Positions 22 to 35,106 of a stretch of DNA of 35,675 nt are shown one piece after another. Source of the stretch: a virus. The notes under the pieces were generated by a model. The model saw only the letters and a program-made list of their open reading frames with translations, did not search any database and had not been told where the DNA came from. Location of the stretch: IMG/VR virus record IMGVR_UViG_3300013286_000030, positions 1 to 35,675 of that record; one strand, 5' to 3'. How positions within the stretch are numbered: the first letter of the stretch is position 1; every line of letters begins with the position of its first letter. Position numbers and translations under genes: made by a program.

Positions 22-240
22 ATGTACAATAAAAAAACTCAACTGTATAAAATTGTAGTTGCATTTAATGTACATAAAAAAGAAAATGATAATGGAGATA
101 CTGTACATGTATTTCCTACACAGGCTAAATGCGATTATGTTAGCGGTGATATTGTTTATAAAACACTGCAAAAAGATAAAGAACGTATTATGCAATTGGT
201 TAAACAACAACTGCGCACAGATAATATTGAGTTTGTTTAA
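22..240 (+). CDS. Hypothetical 72-aa protein
   Basis: The protein is small, soluble and rich in lysine and charged residues, and I do not recognise its family. The frame is open back to base 1, so it could continue upstream. However, an ATG at 22 overlaps a TAA in another frame (TAATG, 20-24), an arrangement used elsewhere in this window at 12616-12620, so I took that ATG as the start. There is no clear ribosome binding site. The stop codon runs directly into the long inverted repeat that starts at 239. No signal peptide or membrane segment is seen. Confidence 0.5.
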   Translation: MYNKKTQLYKIVVAFNVHKKENDNGDTVHVFPTQAKCDYVSGDIVYKTLQKDKERIMQLVKQQLRTDNIEFV

Positions 241-344
241 CCTTTTACTACAGAGAATCGACTTATTATATTGATAATGTGTTTGCGGCCTCTATACGCA
301 TAGTCATTAATGATTAAAGGTCGGTTTCTCTGTAGTGAAAGGTT
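239..344. repeat. Long imperfect inverted repeat (about 23-bp arms)
   Basis: The left arm at 239-262 and the right arm at 320-344 are complementary over about 23 positions. The core ACTACAGAGAA is matched exactly by TTCTCTGTAGT, with one wobble position and a one-base bulge. The 57-base loop contains a possible 4-bp TGCG/CGCA stem and further TAATG/CATTA pairing. It starts at the stop codon of the 22-240 gene. Neither strand shows a T-run just after the stem, so it is not a standard intrinsic terminator. It may block read-through by convergent transcripts, protect a 3' end, or be part of a structured RNA. Confidence 0.7.
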
Positions 345-345
345 C

Positions 346-380
346 AAAAAGATAATAGGACCCATTTGAGTCCTATTATC
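346..380 (-). terminator. Intrinsic terminator for the minus-strand tRNA transcript
   Basis: GATAATAGGAC (351-361) and GTCCTATTATC (370-380) form a perfect 11-bp stem with an 8-base loop. Read on the minus strand, the stem is followed directly by TTTTT (350-346), the normal arrangement of a Rho-independent terminator. On the plus strand no T-run follows. It therefore ends transcripts coming leftward from the tRNA at 600-677. Confidence 0.75.
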
Positions 381-599
381 AGTGGATTATCTACGCGAGT
401 TTCAGGATAATCCCCCGCCCAGTTTGTTCCTGCCACTAGGGCTAGCCTCTACCACTAGAAGGTATATGGTCACTGGTTCGGTGCAGTAACGCAAGATCTA
501 TGTCATTACTCAACTATAGATAGTGATCTCCCAGACTTCTAGCTCCTGATCATGTACTATAACTATATCCTGCTGCCTACGGTTTACATATATACACTA
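381..599 (-). ncRNA. Candidate structured RNA between tRNA and terminator
   Basis: This stretch of about 220 bases has no supported ORF, yet lies between a tRNA and an intrinsic terminator on the same strand, so it should be transcribed leftward. It contains an 8-bp hairpin (GGATTATC 383-390 with GATAATCC 405-412), a small ACTG/CAGT hairpin near 472-486, an AGATC/GATCT stem around 494-530, and two copies of CTAGTGG (minus strand). It may be only a tRNA trailer, a degraded tRNA cluster, or a separate small RNA. I recognise no known RNA family. Confidence 0.35.
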
Positions 600-677
<78 letters not shown>

Positions 678-1171
678 ACTATACTATATACACTGTATAT
701 GAATACTTATTATACACTCGATAGTAGAGTCGTCATAGTGATCTCTCAAGTGTATAAGGTTCTCTGTTGTAGATACACTACAGCAAGGTTGACAACTACT
801 GTGATCTACGGTGGAAAAACCGTGCCAAATCGGTGGAAAACCGTTCCAAAACCTTCCAAAACGTAGGCATTCTAGGTCAGAAATCGTGAATTTCAGCGTG
901 AAAATCTACGGTGGATCTACAGTCCAAAGGCTGTGGGGCAGAGAGGCTATCGTAAAATGGTGCCAACCATTCCCCACAGTAGACCAAAGGAAAAACCACT
1001 GTAGAAGACCTTTTCTTTGGTACCCCCGACCCCCTACAGCGGGGTATTGCTATATAGTGTATCGAGTGTATATGTACTGTTCAACGCACTCAACTAATCC
1101 CCAACAGTCTGCAGCGGGGTTTCTGTATACGGGTGGTTGCTCTAGCGGGGCATTACCTATACACTATAGCT
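678..1171. other. Gene-free region dense in hairpins and short repeats
   Basis: I find no convincing gene in these 494 bases. There are many inverted repeats. ACGGT/ACCGT (808-823) and CGGT/ACCG (831-843) each enclose a GGAAA loop. CTGTGGGG/CCCCACAG (931-938 with 972-979) encloses AATGGT/ACCATT (956-971). ACCAAAG plus AAAA pairs with TTTT plus CTTTGGT (983-1021), and ACCCC pairs with GGGGT (1029-1045). TATACA-C-TGTATA (687-699) is a perfect interrupted palindrome. Short motifs recur in both orientations: ATACACTA/AGTGTAT, CTACRGTGG/CCACNGTAG, CCAAAGG and AGCGGGG. This could be a structured RNA, a replication or packaging site, or a long leader for the lipoprotein gene. The sequence does not decide between these. 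Confidence 0.55.
709..736 (-). promoter_or_regulatory. Possible sigma-70 promoter for the tRNA
   Basis: On the minus strand, ATGACG (736-731) is separated by 16 bases from an exact TATAAT (714-709). Transcription would start near 700, about 25 bases before the tRNA 5' end. The -10 is perfect and the -35 matches at four of six positions. Confidence 0.4.
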
Positions 1172-1558
1172 ATGCGTCTATTCCGACTCTTTACCACTAT
1201 ACTTGTCACTACGTGTCTCTTTGGTTGTGCTACTACTAGTGATACCTATACTCAATATCGACATGATCCCTACACTGCTGCGGTTGCTGATCTAGTCACT
1301 ACTGCTGTTGCTGTCCGCAATGGAGCACATGAGTTAAACCCCGTGGGAGTCAACGGGGTTATAGTGGCAAAAGGTATATACTTATTTGGCATACGACCCA
1401 GTTTGGATGTGGCGGCAAGGGCTGCTTATGATCGTAGTGCTAGTGCTATATGGTACGGGGCCGCTGTGAACAATCTTGTATTGATCCTATTTCCCTCTGC
1501 GGGAGTGATAGCAGTTGTGGCGGGACTCGGGGCTGGTTACACTGTATATAGGGACTAG
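1172..1558 (+). CDS. Small lipoprotein with C-terminal membrane segments
   Basis: The protein has 128 residues from the ATG at 1172. The N-terminus MRLFRLFTTILVTTCLFGC is a clear lipoprotein signal peptide with lipobox LFGC, so the mature protein should start at Cys19 and be lipid-anchored. An upstream in-frame start at 1133 would bury this signal and is less likely. Downstream come the segment AVRNGAHELNPVG, which resembles the short D...G.HE.NP pattern of small integral membrane proteins such as DUF5658 (weak recall), and a hydrophobic C-terminal part (about residues 95-122) rich in Val, Ile, Ala and Gly. It could be a phage envelope protein acting in lysis or superinfection exclusion; that is inference. 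An exact 8-bp stem (AACCCCGT/ACGGGGTT, 1337-1360) lies inside the gene. No ribosome binding site is obvious. Confidence 0.75.
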   Translation: MRLFRLFTTILVTTCLFGCATTSDTYTQYRHDPYTAAVADLVTTAVAVRNGAHELNPVGVNGVIVAKGIYLFGIRPSLDVAARAAYDRSASAIWYGAAVNNLVLILFPSAGVIAVVAGLGAGYTVYRD

Positions 1559-10105: not shown

Positions 10106-11221
10106 GTGTATATGCAGGCTAAACCTCGTCCCAAGTTCACATGGCACCGTAATCCAGTGTTAGATACTACGATGACATTCGAAGATGATCCATTTATGGT
10201 GTACTATCCCGACGAGTGGAATGAACAATATGAACATGTTTGGTATATTGATCCTAGATTTAACCCAACTGATGACACTGTCTGGGCAATTAAATGTATA
10301 CCTACTGGTGTAAACATAGGTATTAAGAAGGAAGGCTATGTTATTCCCAATGTTAAGATAGAAGTTAATCCTGCTCTATCATATCTAGATGTTGATATCA
10401 ACGAATGTTGTCCTGCCTATTGGGATCTGGCATATGAATGTGCATGGGAATTAGATTCAGAGTACACAGAAGAACGCACCTGGGTAATCAAATTTAGTCC
10501 AGCTTATAGAAAACCTAAAAGTTGGAAATGGTACGGTGTTATAGAATTAAATATTCCTAAATTAGATGTTGTATTCATCAGCTATAACGAACCTAATGCA
10601 GAAGACAATTGGCTTCGTGTATTGGAGAAAGCTCCACATGCCAAACGAGTAGATGGGGTTAAAGGTATCTTCAATGCTCATAAAGCCGCAGCAAAGTTGG
10701 CATCGACTGACATGTTTTATATAGTTGATGGTGATGCATATCTAACAGATAATTGGCAGTTTGATTTTAATCCCATTATATTTGATAGAGATTGTTCATA
10801 TGTATGGTACAGTCGTAATCCTGTAAACGATCTTATTTACGAAAACGGTGGAGTTAAATTATTCCCTAGATCCTTGTTGAGAAAGAAACGTAAATGGACC
10901 TCACTAGATATGTTTACAAGTATATCTGATAAGATTAAAGTAATGGATACCGTTAGTAACACAACAACATTTAACACAGACGAGTTCTCAACATGGCGTA
11001 GTGCTTTTAGAGAATGTGTTAAACTATATACTATCAATCAAACAACTAAATTAAATGTATGGCTAACCATTGGGGAAGATAAACCATTTGGGAAACATGC
11101 CATTGCAGGAGCAGAGGCTGGTTATCAATATGCAAAAGACAATGCAGACAACTACAAAGCACTAAAGAACATCAACGACTATGAATGGTTGTACAATCAA
11201 TTTAATAAAAGAATAGAATGA
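10106..11221 (+). CDS. GT-A-like glycosyltransferase
   Basis: The protein has 371 residues. The C-terminal half carries LDVVFISYNEP (about 153-163) as a nucleotide-sugar binding start, GIFNAHKAAAKLAS as the following helix, and FYIVDGDAYL with Asp218-Gly-Asp220 as the metal-binding DxD motif of GT-A enzymes. The first 140 residues are an extra tryptophan-rich beta region I do not recognise, which might bind the acceptor. GTG at 10106 has AGGA six bases upstream; ATG at 10112 is possible but with longer spacing. It is the first gene of a twelve-gene run, and its stop overlaps the radical SAM start by four bases. Confidence 0.7.
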   Translation: MYMQAKPRPKFTWHRNPVLDTTMTFEDDPFMVYYPDEWNEQYEHVWYIDPRFNPTDDTVWAIKCIPTGVNIGIKKEGYVIPNVKIEVNPALSYLDVDINECCPAYWDLAYECAWELDSEYTEERTWVIKFSPAYRKPKSWKWYGVIELNIPKLDVVFISYNEPNAEDNWLRVLEKAPHAKRVDGVKGIFNAHKAAAKLASTDMFYIVDGDAYLTDNWQFDFNPIIFDRDCSYVWYSRNPVNDLIYENGGVKLFPRSLLRKKRKWTSLDMFTSISDKIKVMDTVSNTTTFNTDEFSTWRSAFRECVKLYTINQTTKLNVWLTIGEDKPFGKHAIAGAEAGYQYAKDNADNYKALKNINDYEWLYNQFNKRIE

Positions 11222-12618
11222 GTATAGAAACAAATCGTATACAGAGAACAATTAAGATAGTAAACGAAGTTAGCCCTACATTCTGTTTGGCAAAATGGCA
11301 TCATACATCTATGTATCTGCATCTGGGTAATACTCACAGTTGCTATCATCCTGCACCACATGCCATTCCCCTAGCTGAAATAAAAGACAATCCGGGAGCA
11401 CTACACAATACACTTCAAAAGAAGAAAGAACGTGCAGAGATGTTAGTAGGCGAGAAGCCCGATGGTTGCCAGTACTGTTGGAATGTCGAAAGCCTAAGTC
11501 CTGATCATATATCCGATCGTATGATTCGCAATGCTAGCCTTTATACTCCAGAACGCCTAGATGAGATCACTGATAACAATTGGCAACTAGATGTTAATCC
11601 AGATTACATAGAAGTCAGCTTCAGCAATGAGTGTAATTTTAAATGCGGATATTGTCATCCTAAACATTCTAGCAGTTACTACAGTGAGATCAAACAGTTT
11701 GGACCTTATCCAAACGTAAAGAATCACGGCAACAGCATTGACCAATTTACTATTCATCAAGAAGAAAACAATTCCTGGATTGAGGCTTGGTGGAAGTGGT
11801 GGCCTGAAATGTCTAAGTCACTAAACATCTTACGTATTACAGGCGGCGAGCCTTTGATGCACCGTAGTACTTGGAGATTGTTCGAACATCTAAAACAGGA
11901 ACCAAAACCCAACTTGGAACTTAATCTTAACAGTAACTTTGGAGTTAAGACCGCAATGGTTGAGCGCCTTAGTGATAATGTAAATGTATTATTAGAGAGT
12001 AATTCTATAAGTAGATTTAAATTATTCTCTAGTATGGACAGTTGGGGTCCTCGAGCAGAGTATATGCGTACAGGATTAGATACAGAATTGTGGGAACATA
12101 ATCTTGATCATTACATTCGAACAACTCATTCCGAAGTTTCTATTATGTGTACTTTTAATATTTTGAGTGTGACTTCGTTTACTGATTTTCTAAAAAAGAT
12201 ATTAGAATGGCGGGTAACTTACAATGACATCATACAGGTGCCGGCTGATAAGAAGATAAGGAAGATACGATTCGATACTCCTTATCTAAAAGAGCCTTTG
12301 CAGTATGATATGCACATTCTTCCAAAAGAAGAATTCATTCCATATCTTGATCAAATATTGACATTCATTGATGATAATAGAGATGAGGATGACATTACTA
12401 AGTTCTCAGATATGGAGTATGAGCGATTCCGTAGAGTAAGAGATTACTTTGCAACAGTAGCATACGACGAAGATCGTATTAAAGAAGGACGCATAGATTT
12501 CTACAATTGGTTTACTGAATACGATCGTAGAAGAAATGTTAATTTTCTAGAAACATTTCCAGAAATGACAAACTTTTGGAACATGTGTAAAAACTTATCT
12601 ATAAATATGCTACTATAA
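11218..12618 (+). CDS. Radical SAM protein with N-terminal twitch-like cysteine motif (first copy)
   Basis: The protein has 466 residues. Radical SAM enzymes bind a [4Fe-4S] cluster through CxxxCxxC and cleave S-adenosylmethionine to start radical chemistry. Here the motif is Cys139, Cys143, Cys146 in NECNFKCGYCHP, followed by RITGGEPLM, the GGE motif for SAM binding. Before the core, Cys23, Cys42, Cys84 and Cys87 (CYHP and CQYCW contexts) look like ligands of an auxiliary cluster. This is the N-terminal twitch arrangement reported for a phage and bacterial radical SAM family. The gene overlaps its neighbours at both ends (ATGA and TAATG). It pairs with the 525-aa protein at 17828, which has the same cysteine positions. 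The substrate is unknown; a sugar or peptide in the surrounding pathway is plausible. Confidence 0.9.
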   Translation: MSIETNRIQRTIKIVNEVSPTFCLAKWHHTSMYLHLGNTHSCYHPAPHAIPLAEIKDNPGALHNTLQKKKERAEMLVGEKPDGCQYCWNVESLSPDHISDRMIRNASLYTPERLDEITDNNWQLDVNPDYIEVSFSNECNFKCGYCHPKHSSSYYSEIKQFGPYPNVKNHGNSIDQFTIHQEENNSWIEAWWKWWPEMSKSLNILRITGGEPLMHRSTWRLFEHLKQEPKPNLELNLNSNFGVKTAMVERLSDNVNVLLESNSISRFKLFSSMDSWGPRAEYMRTGLDTELWEHNLDHYIRTTHSEVSIMCTFNILSVTSFTDFLKKILEWRVTYNDIIQVPADKKIRKIRFDTPYLKEPLQYDMHILPKEEFIPYLDQILTFIDDNRDEDDITKFSDMEYERFRRVRDYFATVAYDEDRIKEGRIDFYNWFTEYDRRRNVNFLETFPEMTNFWNMCKNLSINMLL

Positions 12619-13352
12619 TGAATAAGTTAACTGACATCTTTGCTAATAATCTGTTTAATGGTGCCCAAGATTTTAATAATGGGGCACCTTTACCAATGAC
12701 GGTTATTGATAACTTTCTACCAGAATCATTTGCTAAAAAGTTGTTCGAAGAGAGTACTAGTGTAGAAGATACAGAGTGGAAAACATTTACACGAAATGGT
12801 AGTCATATGAAGGAACTAAACAAACTTCATCTTACTCCGGATGCTTTTCATCTAGTGTCATATCTTCACAGCAGTTATTTTCTAAATCAGTTGTCTGCCT
12901 ACACAGGCATTACTGGATTGATTCCAGATCCTCATATGGTGGGTGCAGGATATAGTAAAAGTTTTAATGGTGATATACTTAAAGTTCATAATGATTTTAA
13001 TTGGAACGATACATTGCAATTACACAGAGTATTATCACTTATAATCTATCTAACTCCTGAGTGGGATCCAAACTGGGGAGGTGGTTTAGATTTTTATGAC
13101 AACAAAAAAGAAAACATAATAACTACTGTAGATACACTATTCAATCGATGCCTAATATGGAAATATGACAAGGTTGGATATCATGGATACGAAACTCCTA
13201 TCAGTTGTCCTATTGACATACATAGAACAACCTTTAGAGTATTCTATTATACAAGTAATTCAACACACTTGAAAGACGATCCGCCGCACAGGAGTCAATA
13301 TTGGATTGATCCTGTTACTAAATTACCTTACGATGTTAAGGAAGAAAAATAA
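12618..13352 (+). CDS. 2OG-Fe(II) oxygenase, prolyl hydroxylase-like
   Basis: The protein has 244 residues. LKVHNDFNW gives His124 and Asp126; HRVLSLIIYLTPEWDPNWGG followed by GLDFY is the characteristic P4H strand-turn; YHGYETP gives the distal His189; and RTTFRVFYYTSN supplies the 2OG-binding Arg. The motif set matches the P4H-type group better than the first three oxygenases of the 3582-5743 cassette. Its ATG shares one base with the stop of the radical SAM gene (TAATG). It is AT-rich like the four genes that follow. Lying inside a glycan-modification run, its target may be a sugar chain, a glycoprotein or a small molecule. Confidence 0.87.
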   Translation: MNKLTDIFANNLFNGAQDFNNGAPLPMTVIDNFLPESFAKKLFEESTSVEDTEWKTFTRNGSHMKELNKLHLTPDAFHLVSYLHSSYFLNQLSAYTGITGLIPDPHMVGAGYSKSFNGDILKVHNDFNWNDTLQLHRVLSLIIYLTPEWDPNWGGGLDFYDNKKENIITTVDTLFNRCLIWKYDKVGYHGYETPISCPIDIHRTTFRVFYYTSNSTHLKDDPPHRSQYWIDPVTKLPYDVKEEK

Positions 13353-16922: not shown

Positions 16923-17831
16923 ATGTTAGATCAACCAAATTGGCGTAGATTTCAAAGACACGGTTTCGATGACGGCAAGTTTAATCTAGAGTTTACAAGT
17001 AATAGAGGTGACGGTACAGAACATCCTCCTCTATTTCCCGGATATATAAATCATGCTAGCCATCCTCTTACATATATACAATCACTTACTTACGAGATTG
17101 ATGGGAAGTTAACAAACAAATGGTCAGGTACTGATAGTCCCGAACGATTTAATGAGAGCAAAAAGAAATCTCCTTCAGATTGGAAGTATCTTACTAAAGA
17201 CGTAGACTATCTAGTCAACACTAGCGGATTCCGAACAACCGAATTTAAAAACATTGATTGGCAAAATTCTATAGTATTGTTAGGATGTTCATGCACTTTT
17301 GGGATAGGCCTAGCCGAAGATGAAACTATTGCATATGAATTAGAACAACGGCTAGGCAGACCTGTAATTAATTTAGGAATTCCGGGCGGATCAAATCAGC
17401 ATATTATAAATGTATGTTCAGCACTTCGTGAAAAATTTCCAACTCCTGCAGGCATTGTAATAAATTGGTCAACTGGTGATCGCTTTCCTTATTATTTTAA
17501 ATATGATCAATACCAAGTCGGCCCTTGGGATACGACATCAGTTCGAGGTAGCGACTTAATTAGGGATGGTGTTAACATTTCTAAATTATGGGAAAACAGA
17601 TACTTCGACAGGTACAATGAGTTATGCGAAAGTTATTATCTATCAAGAACAGCCAACGCAATATGGAAAGACATTACAAAGTATGTGACTATATCTCAAT
17701 TTACAGATGCTGCACATGCTATGCGAGTAGATAAATTTTTTGAAATTGATTTAGGTGCACGAGACTTATTACATCCCGGTCATGCTAGTTCGATAAAAAT
17801 TGCAGAATATCTTTATTCAAAATTAAAATGA
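16923..17831 (+). CDS. SGNH/GDSL-like hydrolase (second of two)
   Basis: From the ATG at 16923 it encodes 302 residues. Block I is VLLGCSCTFGIGLAEDET with candidate nucleophile Ser123; block II is NLGIPGGSN (about 150-158); block V is ARDLLHPGHAS with an intact Asp-x-x-His pair. About 110 residues precede block I and show no known fold. An upstream in-frame ATG at 16875 would overlap the previous gene, while ATG 16923 follows CAGGACAC, a fair ribosome binding site, and starts one base after the preceding stop. The end overlaps the next gene by four bases (ATGA). It probably edits acyl groups on a sugar; the substrate is unknown. Confidence 0.75.
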   Translation: MLDQPNWRRFQRHGFDDGKFNLEFTSNRGDGTEHPPLFPGYINHASHPLTYIQSLTYEIDGKLTNKWSGTDSPERFNESKKKSPSDWKYLTKDVDYLVNTSGFRTTEFKNIDWQNSIVLLGCSCTFGIGLAEDETIAYELEQRLGRPVINLGIPGGSNQHIINVCSALREKFPTPAGIVINWSTGDRFPYYFKYDQYQVGPWDTTSVRGSDLIRDGVNISKLWENRYFDRYNELCESYYLSRTANAIWKDITKYVTISQFTDAAHAMRVDKFFEIDLGARDLLHPGHASSIKIAEYLYSKLK

Positions 17832-19405
17832 GCAACTATAATAAATCAGCTGACGTTGCAGAACATCAACTAAAGTTTATTAGCAAGTCTATGTGCTATG
17901 CTAAATGGGCACAGGTGTCTATGCACCTTACCAACGGCATGACACATAGTTGTTATCATCCTCCGTTGCACAAGATTGATGTAAAGGAAATAGGAAAGAA
18001 TCCCAGTGCCTTGCATAACACAGTAGAAAAGAAAGCAGAACGTGCATTAATGTTAAAGGGTGAGCGCCCTGTAGGCTGCAACTATTGCTGGAAGATAGAA
18101 GATGCAGGAGCTCGCAGCGATCGTATATATCGTAGTGGAGAGTATTGGGCACAGAATGCTCGAAAAGATATTATCGAAGCACTGGACACAGGTAACATAG
18201 ATCCCCGATATGTTGAAGTTAACTTCAACCAAGCCTGCAACTTCAAATGTATGTATTGTAGTCCGCATCTAAGCACAACATGGGAAGATGAAATAGACAA
18301 GCATGGTCCTTATACCATCATAGGCAAAGACGGACAAACAATAAAACACAATGACATAGAGTATCTTGAGAAGGATGGACTAATGCCGTTGAAAGTACCT
18401 AATAGATACAATCCATATGTCGAAGCGTTTTGGCGTTGGTGGCCTACATTATATAAGAAGTTAGAAGTATTCCGCATTACAGGCGGCGAACCCTTAATGG
18501 ATGCAAATACATTTAAGGTATTAGATTACATTTACGAACATCCTAATGCATGGCTCGAAGTTAGTGTAACTACAAACCTATGTCCACCTAAGCCCGAGCT
18601 AATGGATAAGTTTATTGATAAACTACAGAAGTTAGAGAAGATACAGATATGGGAAGACAAGGAACGTTTTAATCCGGGCTCGGGTAACAACTGGTATGTC
18701 AACATGGCATTAAAGAATGTTGCTGTGTTCGTTAGTGTAGACAGCGTAGGTGAGCAAGCCGAATACATTAGAACAGGACTCGATTTTGATAAGATGGTTG
18801 AGAATGTTAGAACATTGTTAAATGAAACTGACAATACAACAGTGACATTTATCAATACATTCAATGCGTTAAGTGTTACAGGATTTAAAGACTACTTAAA
18901 GTTTATACTACAACTACGTAAAGAATACAGTAAGACGACACAGGGTACAAAACATATCCCTGTACATGATCCCTATCATACACATCCTGATTTTGTAGTG
19001 GACCCGAGACAGCGTATTTGGTTTGATATTCCATTGTTAAGGAATCCTGCATGGCAAGCTATTCAAGTGCTGCCAGAGTCCTTTGATGTGTACTTAAAAG
19101 AAGCTATTGAGTTTATGAAAGCAAACACGGATACAAGTGACTATGTGGGCTTTTACGATTTTGAAATTGACAAGGCAGAACGCAATTTACGTATATTACA
19201 AGATAGAGCATCGCTTGATCCAGATGATGCACAACGGAATGTCGACAACTTGTTTAACTATTTTAAACAACACGACGACCGCCGCGGAACTAATCTATTA
19301 AAGACATTCCCGGAGTTTAGATTACTTGCAGGCAACCCAGCTCCTTTACAGGAAGTTATAACTCTTCCTAAAAAGAAAAAACTTAGTGTATTTGATATAA
19401 GATAA
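17828..19405 (+). CDS. Radical SAM protein with N-terminal twitch-like cysteine motif (second copy)
   Basis: The protein has 525 residues. The radical SAM cluster motif is Cys137, Cys141, Cys144 in QACNFKCMYCSP, followed by FRITGGEPLMD. N-terminal Cys23, Cys42, Cys84 and Cys87 stand at exactly the positions seen in the 11218-12618 protein, with shared contexts SCYHP, ALHNT and YCW. It is about 60 residues longer than its paralogue, mainly between the GGEP motif and the C-terminus. It is less AT-rich than the block just upstream (26 of 60 G+C in 18661-18720). The nucleotidyltransferase-cupin gene follows after nine bases. A role in making an unusual sugar or modified peptide is inference. Confidence 0.9.
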   Translation: MSNYNKSADVAEHQLKFISKSMCYAKWAQVSMHLTNGMTHSCYHPPLHKIDVKEIGKNPSALHNTVEKKAERALMLKGERPVGCNYCWKIEDAGARSDRIYRSGEYWAQNARKDIIEALDTGNIDPRYVEVNFNQACNFKCMYCSPHLSTTWEDEIDKHGPYTIIGKDGQTIKHNDIEYLEKDGLMPLKVPNRYNPYVEAFWRWWPTLYKKLEVFRITGGEPLMDANTFKVLDYIYEHPNAWLEVSVTTNLCPPKPELMDKFIDKLQKLEKIQIWEDKERFNPGSGNNWYVNMALKNVAVFVSVDSVGEQAEYIRTGLDFDKMVENVRTLLNETDNTTVTFINTFNALSVTGFKDYLKFILQLRKEYSKTTQGTKHIPVHDPYHTHPDFVVDPRQRIWFDIPLLRNPAWQAIQVLPESFDVYLKEAIEFMKANTDTSDYVGFYDFEIDKAERNLRILQDRASLDPDDAQRNVDNLFNYFKQHDDRRGTNLLKTFPEFRLLAGNPAPLQEVITLPKKKKLSVFDIR

Positions 19406-20815: not shown

Positions 20816-22294
20816 ATGGACTATATTGGATTAAGCTGCGGCTTTCACGATGCCGCAGTAAGTGTTATCAATTGCTATGGCGAAATTGTATTTGCCGGAC
20901 ACAGCGAACGATACAGTAAAAACAAACATGATGCCGATCTATGCGAGTCTATAATTGAAGACGCATTGTCATACACTGTAGAAGATTACTCTGTACACTA
21001 CTACGAACGTCCTACATTAAAGTATCTGCGCCAATTAGTAGCAGGACAGCGTCCTCAATTACAGACACTAAATGTTAAAAACATAATTGGTAAAGATGCT
21101 ATATCTTTGTTAAACCGTCGTGTGCATACACACAATCATCATCTTAGTCATGCAGCCGCAGGATTCCAAACCAGCCCATTTGATGATGCAACAGTTGTAA
21201 TCATAGATGCAATTGGCGAGTTTGATACAATTACTATATGGCACGCAGAGTACGATAGTGATACAGGTCGCGCTGAATATAAAAAGTTATGGTCGCAACG
21301 CTATCCTAACAGCATAGGATTGTTCTATAGTGCAATGACTGCCCGTGTTGGACTACGACCACTAGATGAAGAATACATCTTAATGGGCATGGCAGCATAC
21401 GGATCTAACACAGTAAACTTAAAAGAACATTTGATCCGTAATGATCACAAGCTGACCTTTAATTATAATCTGCATAAAGGTATTGATCCAATGTTCGAGC
21501 CCAACGCAGATCAATACGACATTGCGGCCAGTAGTCAGGCATTGGTCGAAAGCCTGATTACTACAATGATAGGCAAGGCCCGTGCATTAGGCCGAAGTGC
21601 TAATTTAGTCTACGGTGGCGGTGTTGCCCTTAATTGTAGTGCAAATAGATTACTGGGCAACTACTATGACAACATTTGGATCATGCCTAATCCAGGAGAT
21701 GCTGGCAGCAGTTTAGGTGCGGCTGCATTGGGATACAAGTACGAACTACAATGGACAGATGCGTTTCTTGGACACGACATACCGGGCGACTATCCAATTG
21801 ACGCAATCATACAAGAACTATATACTGATAAGATAGTAGGTGTGGCTAGTGGTCGAGCAGAGTTTGGTCCTAGGGCATTGGGCAACCGCAGCCTGCTTGC
21901 TGACCCTAGAGGTCCAGACATCAAAGATAAAGTAAATGATATCAAACGCCGACAAAAGTTCAGACCCTTTGCGCCCGTTATTTTGGAGGAGCTGGCTAGT
22001 GATTACTTTGATATGCCTCGTGGCTTCAGTAACAGTAGGTATATGCAGTCAATCGCTCGTTGCAGGCTTCCTGACTTATTTCCTGCTATCGTTCATCATG
22101 ATGGCACTAGTCGTGTCCAGACTGTTGCGAAAGATGGCAGCGGAATACGACAACTGCTAGAAAAATGGTATGCTCTAACAGGCTGTCCAATGTTGTTAAA
22201 CACCAGTCTTAACATACGGGGCGAGCCAATGGTCAATAACAGAGCCGATGCAGATCGCTTTGAACAGCAGTACAAGATTACAGTTTGTTCCTAA
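20816..22294 (+). CDS. NodU/CmcH-type carbamoyltransferase
   Basis: The protein has 492 residues. The family transfers a carbamoyl group from carbamoyl phosphate to sugar or natural-product hydroxyls. The N-terminal Kae1-like domain is shown by MDYIGLSCGFHDAAVSVI, HNHHLSHAAAGF (metal-binding histidines) and VIIDAIGEFDTI. YGGGVALNC and NPGDAGSSLGAA follow, and then the C-terminal carbamoyltransferase domain with SGRAEFGPRALGNRSLLADP and FRPFAPVI. CPMLLNTSLNIRGEPMV is the usual C-terminal signature. It is somewhat shorter than cellular members but all main motifs are present. As last gene of the cluster it probably caps or decorates the glycan made by the preceding enzymes. Confidence 0.95.
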   Translation: MDYIGLSCGFHDAAVSVINCYGEIVFAGHSERYSKNKHDADLCESIIEDALSYTVEDYSVHYYERPTLKYLRQLVAGQRPQLQTLNVKNIIGKDAISLLNRRVHTHNHHLSHAAAGFQTSPFDDATVVIIDAIGEFDTITIWHAEYDSDTGRAEYKKLWSQRYPNSIGLFYSAMTARVGLRPLDEEYILMGMAAYGSNTVNLKEHLIRNDHKLTFNYNLHKGIDPMFEPNADQYDIAASSQALVESLITTMIGKARALGRSANLVYGGGVALNCSANRLLGNYYDNIWIMPNPGDAGSSLGAAALGYKYELQWTDAFLGHDIPGDYPIDAIIQELYTDKIVGVASGRAEFGPRALGNRSLLADPRGPDIKDKVNDIKRRQKFRPFAPVILEELASDYFDMPRGFSNSRYMQSIARCRLPDLFPAIVHHDGTSRVQTVAKDGSGIRQLLEKWYALTGCPMLLNTSLNIRGEPMVNNRADADRFEQQYKITVCS

Positions 22295-30999: not shown

Positions 31000-33900
31000 A
31001 TGGCAACAAGAATTAAACTACGCAGAGATACAGCGGCAAATTGGACAACAACTAATCCAATACTGGCTGCAGGTGAAACAGGTTTTGAAACTGACACCCG
31101 TATGATTAAACTAGGTGACGGTTCAACTCACTGGGCCAACTTGAAATATGCTGTTACTGGAGATATGCGTATTACAGGAACGACCATTGCCAGCGACACT
31201 GATATCAAATTCAGTTCGCATTCTGGAACACGAGAAAATTGGGCATTGACTGTTAATGCTATCAGCAGCCCAACTGATCCCATTGAGGCATGGACAGATG
31301 CTGTGGCCTACGATAGCGAGGGTAATGCTTTTGTTGCCGGTTGGTATCAGGATCAACAGCCTACCACTTCCGCCAAGTATAGCGGAGCATTCTTGATGAA
31401 GGTTGATCCTACTGGACAAGTATTATGGAACAACTACTATAATGAATATACCACCTATGGTTGGGGTGTGTCTGTGGATCACGATGGCAATGCTATATTG
31501 ATTTTGAGTGAAGTTGATGGTCCGGATTCTGATATCGTTATGATCAAAGTTACTGGTGCTGCGGGTGTTCCTATTTGGCAAAGATACCTTGCCAGTGCCA
31601 ATTACTATGATGACTTTGCTACCAGCATTGATGTTGATGCCAACAATGATATCTTTATCACAGGTTGGACAGGTGCCAACGGCATCAATAACGGTAATCC
31701 AACTTTCTTAATCGCTAAAATAAATGGCACCAATGGTACATTCACTGGCGGCTGGCAAAAGATGCTTACCGCTAATACTGGATGTAATACAGAAGTAGGA
31801 TGGGGCATTGCTGTTGATCCAGCCGGTGATGTATGTATTGTTGGCGATGGACAAACCATTGGTAATGAATTTATTCCAGTGGTCAAACGCAATGGTGTCA
31901 CTGGTAGTGCTGTATGGCAAACCCGTATTTTTGATCAACTGAGTTGGAATGGTAATATCTATACAGGTACAGAAATTTTGGGTACAGATGTAACATCAGA
32001 TAGCCAAGGTGACTTTTATGTTACATGGTGGGGTAATTGGAATGGAGACGGTCCTGGATTTCCTGGCACACAATGCGGTGTGACCAAACTGAGTGGTGTA
32101 GATGGTACCGCAATGTGGAGTCGCCAAATTGGTCATCCTGATTACCTAAGTGTTTCAGGATCCATAGTCTGTGACAGCGATGATAACCTATACGTACATA
32201 GTAGTATTGACTCTAGTCAAGCCAGCGGCGTTCCGGATAGTGGATTTAATTCTGTTATAGTTAAATTCAACGCACAAGGTACAGTGATTTGGAAACGCAC
32301 ATTAAGCAGAGAACAATATACTACATTCAGCAGTACTGTTCCTTATCCATATAGTCCGGGTGGATTACCAGGCGGACAAACTGTGGCAGTCAATGATGAA
32401 TACTTGTTAATCGGCGGCACACAATTTATTACCCTTGATTATGAGGAGGATCAAAACTGGTACAATCAACCATTCTTGGTACAGGTAGACAAGTCGGGCA
32501 CAGAGTTTTCAGTAGATGGTTGGCATTTCAAGGCTAGCCCAGATTTTCCTGTTACGCTAGTAACGCCAGTAATTGATAACCAACATTTCTTCAATGACAT
32601 GTTGGCATTTCCGGGTACATTGACCAATGTTAATGCTGTTGATGTATTCTATCAACCCAACATGGATACCACTGATCTAAGTTATAGAATTATGCCTAGA
32701 GCAGAGACTATGACCTTTGATGGTAATAAATTAACATTACCTCTAGGTGGTAGCATAGATGTTGCTCGTGAAAAAATTGGCTACATTACCAGCGTGGGTA
32801 ACTTTAACGGAACAGAAGGCGGGAATACTCAGGGCAATGTATGGTTCAACGGTGTGGTCAGAGACAACCAAGGTGGCAGTTATGCTGTTGGTGCGTGGTA
32901 TAACTACGGTCCATGGAATGATGGTCCTAGTCATGTTGATGTTCCGTTGACAGTCAAGTTTGATGATATGGGACAGGTTGTATGGCAAGCCGGAGACTCA
33001 TTAGATTACTGGACGGAGGCCATTGATGTCATGATTGATCCAATGACCAATAATCCTGTGGTACTCAGTGGTGACAATGTTCAAGACGGCAGCGAAGGCT
33101 TCACAGTTAAAACACTGGATGCCAACAGCGGTCTTGTTATAGGTGATGTTACACATGTACAGGACGCAAGTGGTTTCCAACATTATGTATGGGCCCGTAA
33201 CCTTGCTTTAATGAGTGATGGCACTCCTGTAGTAGCAGGTTATATCAACAACAACACTGATGACTACCTAAATGTAACCAATGGCGGTGCTGGCCTAACT
33301 GGCAGTAATAATACAGATACTTTGGTTATACCTAATAGCGTGTTCAATCTTGGTCGTTATCCAAGTGCTAATGGTCCATGGTATGTGAGCAATACAAGTC
33401 CAAGTTTAAGCGCATTGATTATAGGAGTCAATCATTTTGCTGGATTCACTGCTACCAATGTAAGCAGTACTGGTACAGGTGCTACATTTAATATTGATAT
33501 TGCTCCGGCAACAGGTGTGTATAGATTAACAGTAGTCTCTAGTGGAACTAATTATCAAAACGGCAATACATTAACAATACCTACCTTGAGTTTCCTAGGC
33601 GTAGCAGATCAGGGAGATATTGCCGTAACTGTTACCACCAACGGTAGTGGCGCTGTAACAACTGCTACAACTACAAGCACCAGCACTTGGGCCGACATTG
33701 AATTAAAGATCAGCGGTACCTACGATTTTACCACATCTACCAGTACGCTTAAGGTCTATGAAAATACCAACAATGATGGATTTATATGGACACCAAATTG
33801 GAGCACTGCTATTGGTGGATCAACTGGTACAGATGGTTTCTATGCTCTAGCCATAGACACAGACGATAATGTTATTGTTGGAGGATATTATGAGCTAACT

Positions 33901-35106
33901 GGCTTACCACAAACTGTTCAAACAGGTACTGTTAGTTCTACTTGGAATCAGACCAGTATGTTGGTCAAGTATTCCAGCACTGGCACTAAACAGTGGTCGT
34001 TATGTTTAGATGGCACAGAGGGTCTTGGAACTGTTACAGGTATCGTGACAGATCCTGACAACAACATCTATGCCATGAAACGAAATCAAGGTGGCAGCTC
34101 TACCAACTATCTAATGAAATTGTCTTCCACTGGAAGCATGGCATGGCAAGTTAGTGTGGGATATGATCGAGAATTCGAAGGTGGTGATTTTGGCATTGCC
34201 ATAGACAGCGATCGTAACATACTGATAGGCGGGTGGTATGACGGTCCTCTTACTGAGTCGGGCACAGGTGACCCCCATGGTATCCTGCTCAACAAGTTTG
34301 ATACAGATGGCAATCTGCTATGGACCAGATTGATTTACAGTAGAGCACAGGATCTTGAGCAAGGCTATAACGATAATTATCGCAACACTATTGACATCCG
34401 CGGTGATAGATTCACTGTAATTGGATATAGTGACGCAGTGGGCAATGAAGATAATCAAGGTTTCTATGCTGACTTGCCATTGGATGGTAGTGGTACAGGC
34501 AACTACAATGACTTCATATATGAAAAGGTTGAACTGCCGATCAATCGTACCACAGTCAGTCGAGTCACAGCATTTACAACAGAAACTAAACCACACGCAT
34601 TTACCGTAACTAATGAAACAAATGTATTGACTATCTATGCGGATAGACAGACTAAGACGGAAACTGTTTATGCAGATATGGGTGGAGAAATTACTTCTGT
34701 TAGTAAGATTGTATTTGAAGATGGTACAGAGCAAACATCAAGTGCTCAAGATATTCCTCAAGTGGACATAAGTCGTGTGAATAGCCACCATGCTTATCTA
34801 CTAATAATGGAAGATCGTGGACATCATGTGTACAGTGGTATAAACTACGATCCTTCATATGTGCTAGTTCCGAGAAACAGTTATGTGCCATTCCCAATAG
34901 GCACTGCTATTACCATTGTAAGCGGTGATTATGATGTGATAATTAGCGCACTAGACACCGGTCATACAACCATTTATGGTGCTGGACAAAGCGGTTATAA
35001 TCAAGGTTGGTGGATTCCAACAAGATCAATGGCAACATTGATCAAAATTGAACAAGATGTTTGGATGTTGGCAGGTGCTGGTTTAGGCACCGGCAGATAT
35101 TGGTAA
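31000..35106 (+). CDS. Giant tail fibre with beta-propeller-like repeats, 1368 aa
   Basis: The N-terminus MATRIKLRRDTAANWTTTNP through LAAGETGFETDTRMIKLGDG, ending HWANLKYA, is a widespread fibre start module. Three stretches (about 90-480, 590-740 and 960-1140) carry repeats of the type D-x-D-x-N-x-(I/Y)-x-x-G-G, for example VDANNDIFITGW, IDTDDNVIVGGYY and IDSDRNILIGGW. These alternate with a WxxxL/Y strand, like SBBP or PQQ-type beta-propeller blades. Between them is a domain with NYQNGNTLTIPT-type repeats. The C-terminus has the GGEITSVSKIVFEDGTEQTS element that often ends repeat shafts, then a small head domain ending GTGRYW. GGAGCTC precedes the ATG. Secretion signals are absent; it should be a virion protein. 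Confidence 0.87.
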   Translation: MATRIKLRRDTAANWTTTNPILAAGETGFETDTRMIKLGDGSTHWANLKYAVTGDMRITGTTIASDTDIKFSSHSGTRENWALTVNAISSPTDPIEAWTDAVAYDSEGNAFVAGWYQDQQPTTSAKYSGAFLMKVDPTGQVLWNNYYNEYTTYGWGVSVDHDGNAILILSEVDGPDSDIVMIKVTGAAGVPIWQRYLASANYYDDFATSIDVDANNDIFITGWTGANGINNGNPTFLIAKINGTNGTFTGGWQKMLTANTGCNTEVGWGIAVDPAGDVCIVGDGQTIGNEFIPVVKRNGVTGSAVWQTRIFDQLSWNGNIYTGTEILGTDVTSDSQGDFYVTWWGNWNGDGPGFPGTQCGVTKLSGVDGTAMWSRQIGHPDYLSVSGSIVCDSDDNLYVHSSIDSSQASGVPDSGFNSVIVKFNAQGTVIWKRTLSREQYTTFSSTVPYPYSPGGLPGGQTVAVNDEYLLIGGTQFITLDYEEDQNWYNQPFLVQVDKSGTEFSVDGWHFKASPDFPVTLVTPVIDNQHFFNDMLAFPGTLTNVNAVDVFYQPNMDTTDLSYRIMPRAETMTFDGNKLTLPLGGSIDVAREKIGYITSVGNFNGTEGGNTQGNVWFNGVVRDNQGGSYAVGAWYNYGPWNDGPSHVDVPLTVKFDDMGQVVWQAGDSLDYWTEAIDVMIDPMTNNPVVLSGDNVQDGSEGFTVKTLDANSGLVIGDVTHVQDASGFQHYVWARNLALMSDGTPVVAGYINNNTDDYLNVTNGGAGLTGSNNTDTLVIPNSVFNLGRYPSANGPWYVSNTSPSLSALIIGVNHFAGFTATNVSSTGTGATFNIDIAPATGVYRLTVVSSGTNYQNGNTLTIPTLSFLGVADQGDIAVTVTTNGSGAVTTATTTSTSTWADIELKISGTYDFTTSTSTLKVYENTNNDGFIWTPNWSTAIGGSTGTDGFYALAIDTDDNVIVGGYYELTGLPQTVQTGTVSSTWNQTSMLVKYSSTGTKQWSLCLDGTEGLGTVTGIVTDPDNNIYAMKRNQGGSSTNYLMKLSSTGSMAWQVSVGYDREFEGGDFGIAIDSDRNILIGGWYDGPLTESGTGDPHGILLNKFDTDGNLLWTRLIYSRAQDLEQGYNDNYRNTIDIRGDRFTVIGYSDAVGNEDNQGFYADLPLDGSGTGNYNDFIYEKVELPINRTTVSRVTAFTTETKPHAFTVTNETNVLTIYADRQTKTETVYADMGGEITSVSKIVFEDGTEQTSSAQDIPQVDISRVNSHHAYLLIMEDRGHHVYSGINYDPSYVLVPRNSYVPFPIGTAITIVSGDYDVIISALDTGHTTIYGAGQSGYNQGWWIPTRSMATLIKIEQDVWMLAGAGLGTGRYW

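What the first reader, a model, noticed from the sequence alone, without database searches (positions are those of the whole stretch)
678..1171. Half-kilobase of nested hairpins and recurring short motifs
At least six separate stems occur, including twin hairpins with near-identical GGAAA loops (808-843), an 8-bp stem enclosing a 6-bp hairpin (931-979) and an 11-bp bulged stem (983-1021). The motifs ATACACTA, CTACRGTGG, CCAAAGG and AGCGGGG recur, some in both orientations. Phage genomes rarely leave such space unused. Candidates are a riboregulator, replication origin or packaging site.
Basis: seen in the sequence. Interest (0 to 1): 0.6.

Follow-up and report, generated by a model that had tools for sequence, protein, structure and literature searches.

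The report
Curved-DNA control site in large phages
The half-kilobase is not an RNA-hairpin region but a DNA control site, found once per genome in a group of large uncultured phages: among the most strongly curved DNA in each genome measured, locked to a conserved 30-base core and followed by 2-4 repeated boxes, most likely where the phage starts copying its genome.

Summary
About 35 related large-phage contigs share a DNA-level element instead: (1) A/T tracts spaced 10.8-10.9 bp over about 110 bp, in register across 34 distinct loci with (2) a 30-bp core (window 932-961), then (3) a right arm with weaker 11-bp phasing, and (4) 2-4 copies of CTACAGCGGGGTATT (window 1034, 1109, 1140). The left arm is predicted to bend 119-176 degrees and ranks above the 99.8th percentile in all seven contigs tested. 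It does not code for protein and has no consensus RNA fold. Best reading: a DNA-wrapping nucleoprotein assembly site, most likely the replication origin; gyrase-type and packaging sites are rivals. Strong DnaA boxes are enriched 23-fold nearby, but only in about a third of genomes and not in this window; GC skew gives no support. Next to it, outside the given coordinates, window 585-372 (minus) encodes an undescribed pseudoknotted RNA with very strong covariation, tightly linked to the element and absent from Rfam.

The parts
351..380 (-). intrinsic terminator-like hairpin GATAATAGGACTCAAATGGGTCCTATTATC followed by TTTTT, ending the adjacent RNA
   Evidence: inverted repeat I4; sequence
372..585 (-). 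adjacent structured, pseudoknotted non-coding RNA (outside the given interval)
   Evidence: covariation; covariance model R1 hits the window at 373-585 with 184.9 bits; no Rfam match
600..677 (-). tRNA-Met (CAT)
709..737 (-). probable sigma70-type promoter for the tRNA and RNA: -10 TATAAT (714-709), weak -35 near 731-737; relatives show TTGACC-17-TATAAT
   Evidence: sequence and alignment of relatives; inferred
793..911 (.). curved left arm: A/T tracts with 10.8-10.9 bp period in register with the core
932..961 (+). conserved 30-bp core TGTGGGGCAGAGAGGCTATCGTAAAATGGT (consensus GGTGGGGATGAGAGGCTATMGTMAAATRST)
962..1030 (+). right arm; in relatives 10-12 bp repeats of TTCTCCCACC type; in the window largely replaced by the 983-1021 hairpin module
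1034..1048 (+). direct-repeat box 1 CTACAGCGGGGTATT
1109..1123 (+). direct-repeat box 2 CTGCAGCGGGGTTTC
1140..1154 (+). direct-repeat box 3 CTCTAGCGGGGCATT
1172..1558 (+). downstream lipoprotein-like gene (46% identical in the nearest relative); not a fixed part of the element

Best explanation
Window 678-1171 carries a cis-acting DNA site on which a large nucleoprotein complex is built. The left arm (about 793-911) is intrinsically curved because its A/T tracts sit on one face of the helix; with the 30-bp core (932-961) and right arm it can wrap around protein, and the AGCGGGG boxes are repeated binding sites for a sequence-specific protein. The most likely job is the phage's replication origin (iteron and curved-DNA type): initiator on the boxes, wrapped core, nearby AT-rich DNA opened. 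Shown by computation: conservation, phasing, predicted curvature, core, boxes, one copy per genome, absence of conserved RNA folding or coding. Inferred: wrapping, protein identity, and initiation of replication.
For: Core and boxes conserved across diverged contigs (41 cluster loci with 111 box copies, 38 cores). Box clusters occur once per genome, even in 160-208 kb contigs, and the core's best score clearly exceeds the second best in most contigs. A/T-tract autocorrelation at lag 11 has z = +19.6, lag 5 z = -11.4; the phase is locked to the core in 34 loci (power 1.47 against a null maximum of 0.36; right arm 0 of 1000 nulls). Predicted bend over 110 bp is 119-176 degrees against a median near 35, at or above the 99.89th percentile in seven contigs. 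A scan with the core alone found 34 viral contigs; of the 13 viral loci looked at in detail, 12 with a complete left arm showed the phasing and all had AGCGGGG boxes (L300 in a variant), while the one bacterial hit had neither. Exact TTATCCACA is 23-fold denser within -900..+350 of the core than elsewhere, reversed control 0 near. The flanking right-hand gene points away in 22 of 30 rows and toward in 8, so the site does not belong to that gene.
Against: Third-codon-position GC skew shows no leading/lagging difference across the site; the local cumulative-skew minimum lies within 400 bp in 14 of 30 rows but gene orientation explains that. DnaA boxes are present in only about a third of genomes and not in this window. 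AT-rich unwinding DNA is inconclusive. No initiator gene was identified nearby; the DnaB-like helicase is 17-29 kb away. No experiment.
Confidence: 0.45

Rival explanations
1. A strong DNA gyrase site: host gyrase wraps the phased arms and cuts or stalls near the core, setting supercoiling or a topological boundary, as the Mu strong gyrase site does.
For: The E. coli gyrase motif has a 36-bp centre flanked by regions with 10.75-bp periodic GC content (PMC6379681); here the period is 10.8-10.9 bp on both sides of a 30-bp core. A and T are equally frequent in the left-arm tracts, a wrapping signature without strand preference. No GyrA-like gene (PF00521) was found in 20 records including one of 322 kb, so host gyrase would be used.
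Against: The left arm is about 110 bp, against 47 bp in the gyrase motif. The core is conserved base by base, unlike gyrase's degenerate centre. The phase profile does not pick out the annotated Mu gyrase cut site, although simple A/T periodicity does not either. It leaves the AGCGGGG boxes unexplained.
Confidence: 0.2
2. A packaging (pac) site: a ring of small-terminase subunits captures the bent arm and the large terminase cuts near the core.
For: SPP1/SF6 small terminase is proposed to select intrinsically bent DNA, and the SPP1 pac site has direct repeats (PMC4737164). The element is single-copy.
Against: The large terminase gene is 36-44 kb away in the four records where it was found, whereas the SPP1 pac site lies at the start of the small terminase gene. 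The element is interior in many contigs, with no sign of a genome end.
Confidence: 0.12
3. A divergent transcription-control region: the boxes and bent DNA regulate the minus-strand tRNA/RNA promoter and the plus-strand gene.
For: A sigma70-like promoter for the tRNA and RNA sits at the left edge; curved DNA upstream of promoters is a known activator; the element and the RNA stay together.
Against: The right-hand gene varies and in 8 of 30 rows is on the opposite strand. The box array is up to several hundred bp from the promoter. Some genomes with the element lack the tRNA.
Confidence: 0.13
4. A structured RNA (riboregulator) transcribed from 678-1171, as the hairpins suggest.
For: Single-sequence folding below shuffles in the window.
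Against: No consensus structure on 34 homologues; the stems are not conserved; energies are mildly low on both strands alike, as expected if complementary repeat arms cause it.
Confidence: 0.04

Closest known systems
Iteron-type replication origins with curved DNA (lambda ori, pSC101 ori; from general knowledge)
   Same: short direct repeats, intrinsic curvature, single copy, conserved core
   Different: no initiator gene identified, DnaA boxes only in some members, 10.8-bp phasing over more than 100 bp locked to a 30-bp core
Mu strong gyrase site / E. coli gyrase motif (PMC6379681)
   Same: a central segment of about 30-36 bp with flanks periodic at about 10.75 bp
   Different: much longer left arm, base-specific core, adjacent box array; not recognised by cross-scan of Mu
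SPP1/SF6 pac site (PMC4737164)
   Same: intrinsically bent DNA plus repeats in a single-copy phage site
   Different: not near the terminase genes; different sequence
E. coli oriC low-affinity DnaA arrays (PMC4285127)
   Same: two arms of repeats around a centre; DnaA-box-like units spaced about 11 bp in some members
   Different: most members lack consensus DnaA boxes; the left arm has no strand preference

Membership tests
Iteron/DnaA-type replication origin | multiple direct repeats of a specific box | tested here: met
   2-4 copies of CTAYAGCGGGGTATT in 41 cluster loci; 3 in the window
Iteron/DnaA-type replication origin | intrinsically curved DNA | tested here: met
   wedge-model prediction only
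Iteron/DnaA-type replication origin | DnaA boxes | tested here: inconclusive
   23-fold enriched overall, in about a third of genomes, none in the window
Iteron/DnaA-type replication origin | AT-rich unwinding element | tested here: inconclusive
   least stable 50 bp near the site at the 92nd to 100th percentile, position varies
Iteron/DnaA-type replication origin | strand-composition switch independent of gene direction | tested here: not met
   third-position GC skew
Iteron/DnaA-type replication origin | supports initiation of replication | not testable with these tools
   needs experiment
Strong gyrase site | about 10.75-bp GC periodicity on both sides of a centre of about 36 bp | tested here: met
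   against PMC6379681
Strong gyrase site | flanking arms of about 47 bp | tested here: not met
   left arm about 110 bp
Strong gyrase site | profile matches a known site (Mu 17879) | tested here: not met
   weak test
Strong gyrase site | gyrase binding or cleavage | not testable with these tools
   needs experiment
Packaging (pac) site | next to terminase genes | tested here: not met
   large terminase 36-44 kb away; small terminase not located
Structured RNA / riboregulator (678-1171) | conserved secondary structure | tested here: not met
Known Rfam family (adjacent RNA, 585-372 minus) | match to a covariance model | tested here: not met

The most novel reading that the evidence does not exclude
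A previously undescribed phage initiation unit in which a pseudoknotted RNA (window 585-372 minus) and a wrapped-DNA site (793-1154) work together, for example with the RNA acting in priming or in assembly of the complex at the site; both parts occur once per genome and side by side.
Probability: 0.15. Interest if true: 0.85.

Novelty: new variant of a known kind. Interest (0 to 1): 0.62.

Why it matters
Replication origins of large T4-like and other uncultured phages are mostly unknown. This gives a sequence signature (core 21-mer, box, 10.8-bp phasing) that picks out one place per genome across a whole group of uncultured phages with no close relatives among 50,697 cultured phage records. 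It makes the origin, gyrase and packaging hypotheses testable from read coverage alone. The neighbouring RNA is a strongly supported new structured RNA of unknown function.

Tried and rejected
Loose pattern CTACRGTGG...CCAAAGG in viral contigs: mostly chance hits, one scan wasted. RNA structure across homologues: none. Hairpin formed by each AGCGGGG box with a downstream CGCTGTA: CGCT appears in 22 of 80 spacers and complementarity is not consistent. Coding: at most 4 of 37 sequences are open in any of six frames across the element. GC-skew origin test: no support beyond gene orientation. Gyrase cross-scan of Mu: no signal. Literature search for a phage origin with this anatomy found none in the held papers. 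The match in Hutsoniella sourekii is chance: no phasing, no boxes.

Full report
What was claimed and what is there. The stems and repeated words reported for 678-1171 exist, and the sequence folds better than dinucleotide shuffles on both strands (z -3.03 and -2.55). The interval lies between a minus-strand tRNA-Met (600-677) and a plus-strand lipoprotein-like gene starting at 1172. The window is a 35.7-kb viral record without close cultured relatives: its neighbouring glycosyltransferase-like gene has no match in 50,697 phage records.

Finding relatives. The lipoprotein gene led to two relatives. One, a 47-kb record, is syntenic with the window over most of its length; its intergenic region keeps the tRNA and its promoter, and three copies of CTACAGCGGGGTATT upstream of the gene and nowhere else in the 47 kb. 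A scan for the tandem box found 37 viral contigs, and a scan with a nearby conserved gene found 72 loci, giving 41 distinct box-cluster loci with 111 box copies. The clusters hold 2-4 boxes, lie about 280-440 bp from a minus-strand tRNA-Met in most loci that have one, and contain almost all occurrences of the box even in contigs of 92-208 kb.

The conserved core. Upstream of the boxes all but a few loci share a 30-bp block, consensus GGTGGGGATGAGAGGCTATMGTMAAATRST; in the window it is 932-961. It is the best match in its contig, usually by a wide margin. A scan with the core 21-mer alone found 34 viral contigs of the same group. Thirteen of those loci were examined: the 12 with a complete left arm showed A/T phasing and all had AGCGGGG boxes (a variant box in L300). 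The only hit in 84,980 bacterial and archaeal genomes had neither, so it is chance.

Phased, curved DNA. Left of the core, A/T tracts repeat every 10.8-10.9 bp. Across 37 loci the tract autocorrelation at lag 11 is z +19.6 and at lag 5 z -11.4 against dinucleotide shuffles. After removing near-duplicates (34 loci) the tracts are in the same register relative to the core: average A/T content swings between about 0.25 and 0.95 from -152 to -44, and again, more weakly, at +22, +32, +43 and +54. Randomly shifting each locus destroys this (observed power 1.47, null maximum 0.36; right arm 0 of 1000). Within the window this is also the most strongly A/T-periodic 100-120 bp. A and T are equally frequent in left-arm tracts, so this looks like a wrapping or bending signal rather than an oriented box; the right arm is directional, TTCTCCCACC-like, with 11-bp self-similarity.

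Not RNA, not protein. On 34 homologues RNAalifold gives no consensus structure around the core on either strand, and single-sequence folding is mildly low and equal on both strands (means -1.62 and -1.75). The 8-bp stem 931-979 and the twin GGAAA hairpins are not kept in relatives; the 983-1021 hairpin recurs only in a few. No frame is open in more than 4 of 37 sequences. The right-hand gene differs among genomes and is on the opposite strand in 8 of 30 rows, so the element is not simply the leader or promoter of one gene.

What it does. Single copy, strong curvature, a core and direct repeats are the anatomy of a nucleoprotein assembly site. For a replication origin: iteron-like boxes, curvature, and a 23-fold excess of exact TTATCCACA near the core (14 in 38 kb against 17 in 1.09 Mb; reversed control 0 near), with obvious arrays in L138 and L151; but only about a third of genomes have them and the window has none. 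Against or neutral: third-position GC skew shows no leading/lagging difference, stability is inconclusive, and no initiator gene was seen beside it. For gyrase: the period and the centre-plus-two-arms design match the E. coli gyrase motif (10.75 bp, 36-bp centre; PMC6379681), and none of 20 records has a GyrA-like gene; but the left arm is more than twice as long, the core is base-specific, and the profile does not recognise the Mu site. For packaging: bent DNA is used by SPP1-type small terminases (PMC4737164), but the large terminase is 36-44 kb away. I give origin 0.45, gyrase-type 0.2, transcription control 0.13, packaging 0.12. That 678-1171 is a conserved DNA-level site rather than an RNA I hold at above 0.9.

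The neighbour. Beyond the tRNA, window 585-372 (minus strand), followed by a terminator-like hairpin (380-351), is a structured RNA. On 18 homologues 35 of 45 predicted pairs have compensatory changes. With an added 8-bp loop-loop helix, 93.8% of cells pair against 33-39% when partners are slid, the covariation score is 0.723 against 0.219 in shuffles (0 of 500 as high), and 47 of 60 pairs have two-sided changes. The structure was derived from the same alignment, which favours it, but not by this margin. A covariance model finds it in further contigs not used to build it, once per record in 13 of 22 records and next to the element where that was mapped. It matches no Rfam family and has no match in cultured phages by blastn. 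It persists where the tRNA is missing.

Limits. The contigs are metagenomic, most are fragments, and identity of the host is unknown. Curvature is predicted, not measured. G002 (322 kb) has boxes but only a diverged core-like sequence and lacks the RNA hit, so the group has variants.

Noticed in passing
window 585-372 (minus): Undescribed pseudoknotted RNA of about 215 nt with very strong covariation, including an 8-bp loop-loop helix, downstream of tRNA-Met; not in Rfam.
   Followed up: yes
window 233-350: 25-nt inverted repeat arms (TTGTTTAACCTTTTACTACAGAGAA / TTCTCTGTAGTGAAAGGTTCAAAAA); the word AACCTTTCACTAC...CGACTT also occurs in the right arms of L163, L165, L219, L232 and left of the tRNA in L138, suggesting a dispersed palindromic module.
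   Followed up: partly
window 983-1021: Hairpin ACCAAAG...CTTTGGT recurs in L159, L165 and L232 at the same place and, as ACCAAAGTAGAT pairs, in L135, L163 and L233; it looks like a swappable module.
   Followed up: partly
L138 around 530-390 bp left of the core; L151 around 620-580 bp left: Dense arrays of exact DnaA boxes TTATNCACA (7 and 4 copies).
   Followed up: partly
L123 against L131 (window-equivalent right arm): Two near-identical contigs differ by one copy of a roughly 21-bp repeat TTTCTTCATTCTTTCCCACCG, showing that right-arm repeats change in number.
   Followed up: no
window 31000-35106: 1368-aa protein with an Mtd N-terminal domain and beta-propeller repeats; probable receptor-binding protein.
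   Followed up: no
window 11218-12618, 17828-19405, 20816-22294, 12618-13352: Radical SAM, NolO-like carbamoyltransferase and 2OG-Fe(II) oxygenase genes clustered near tail-fibre genes, probably surface-sugar modification.
   Followed up: no
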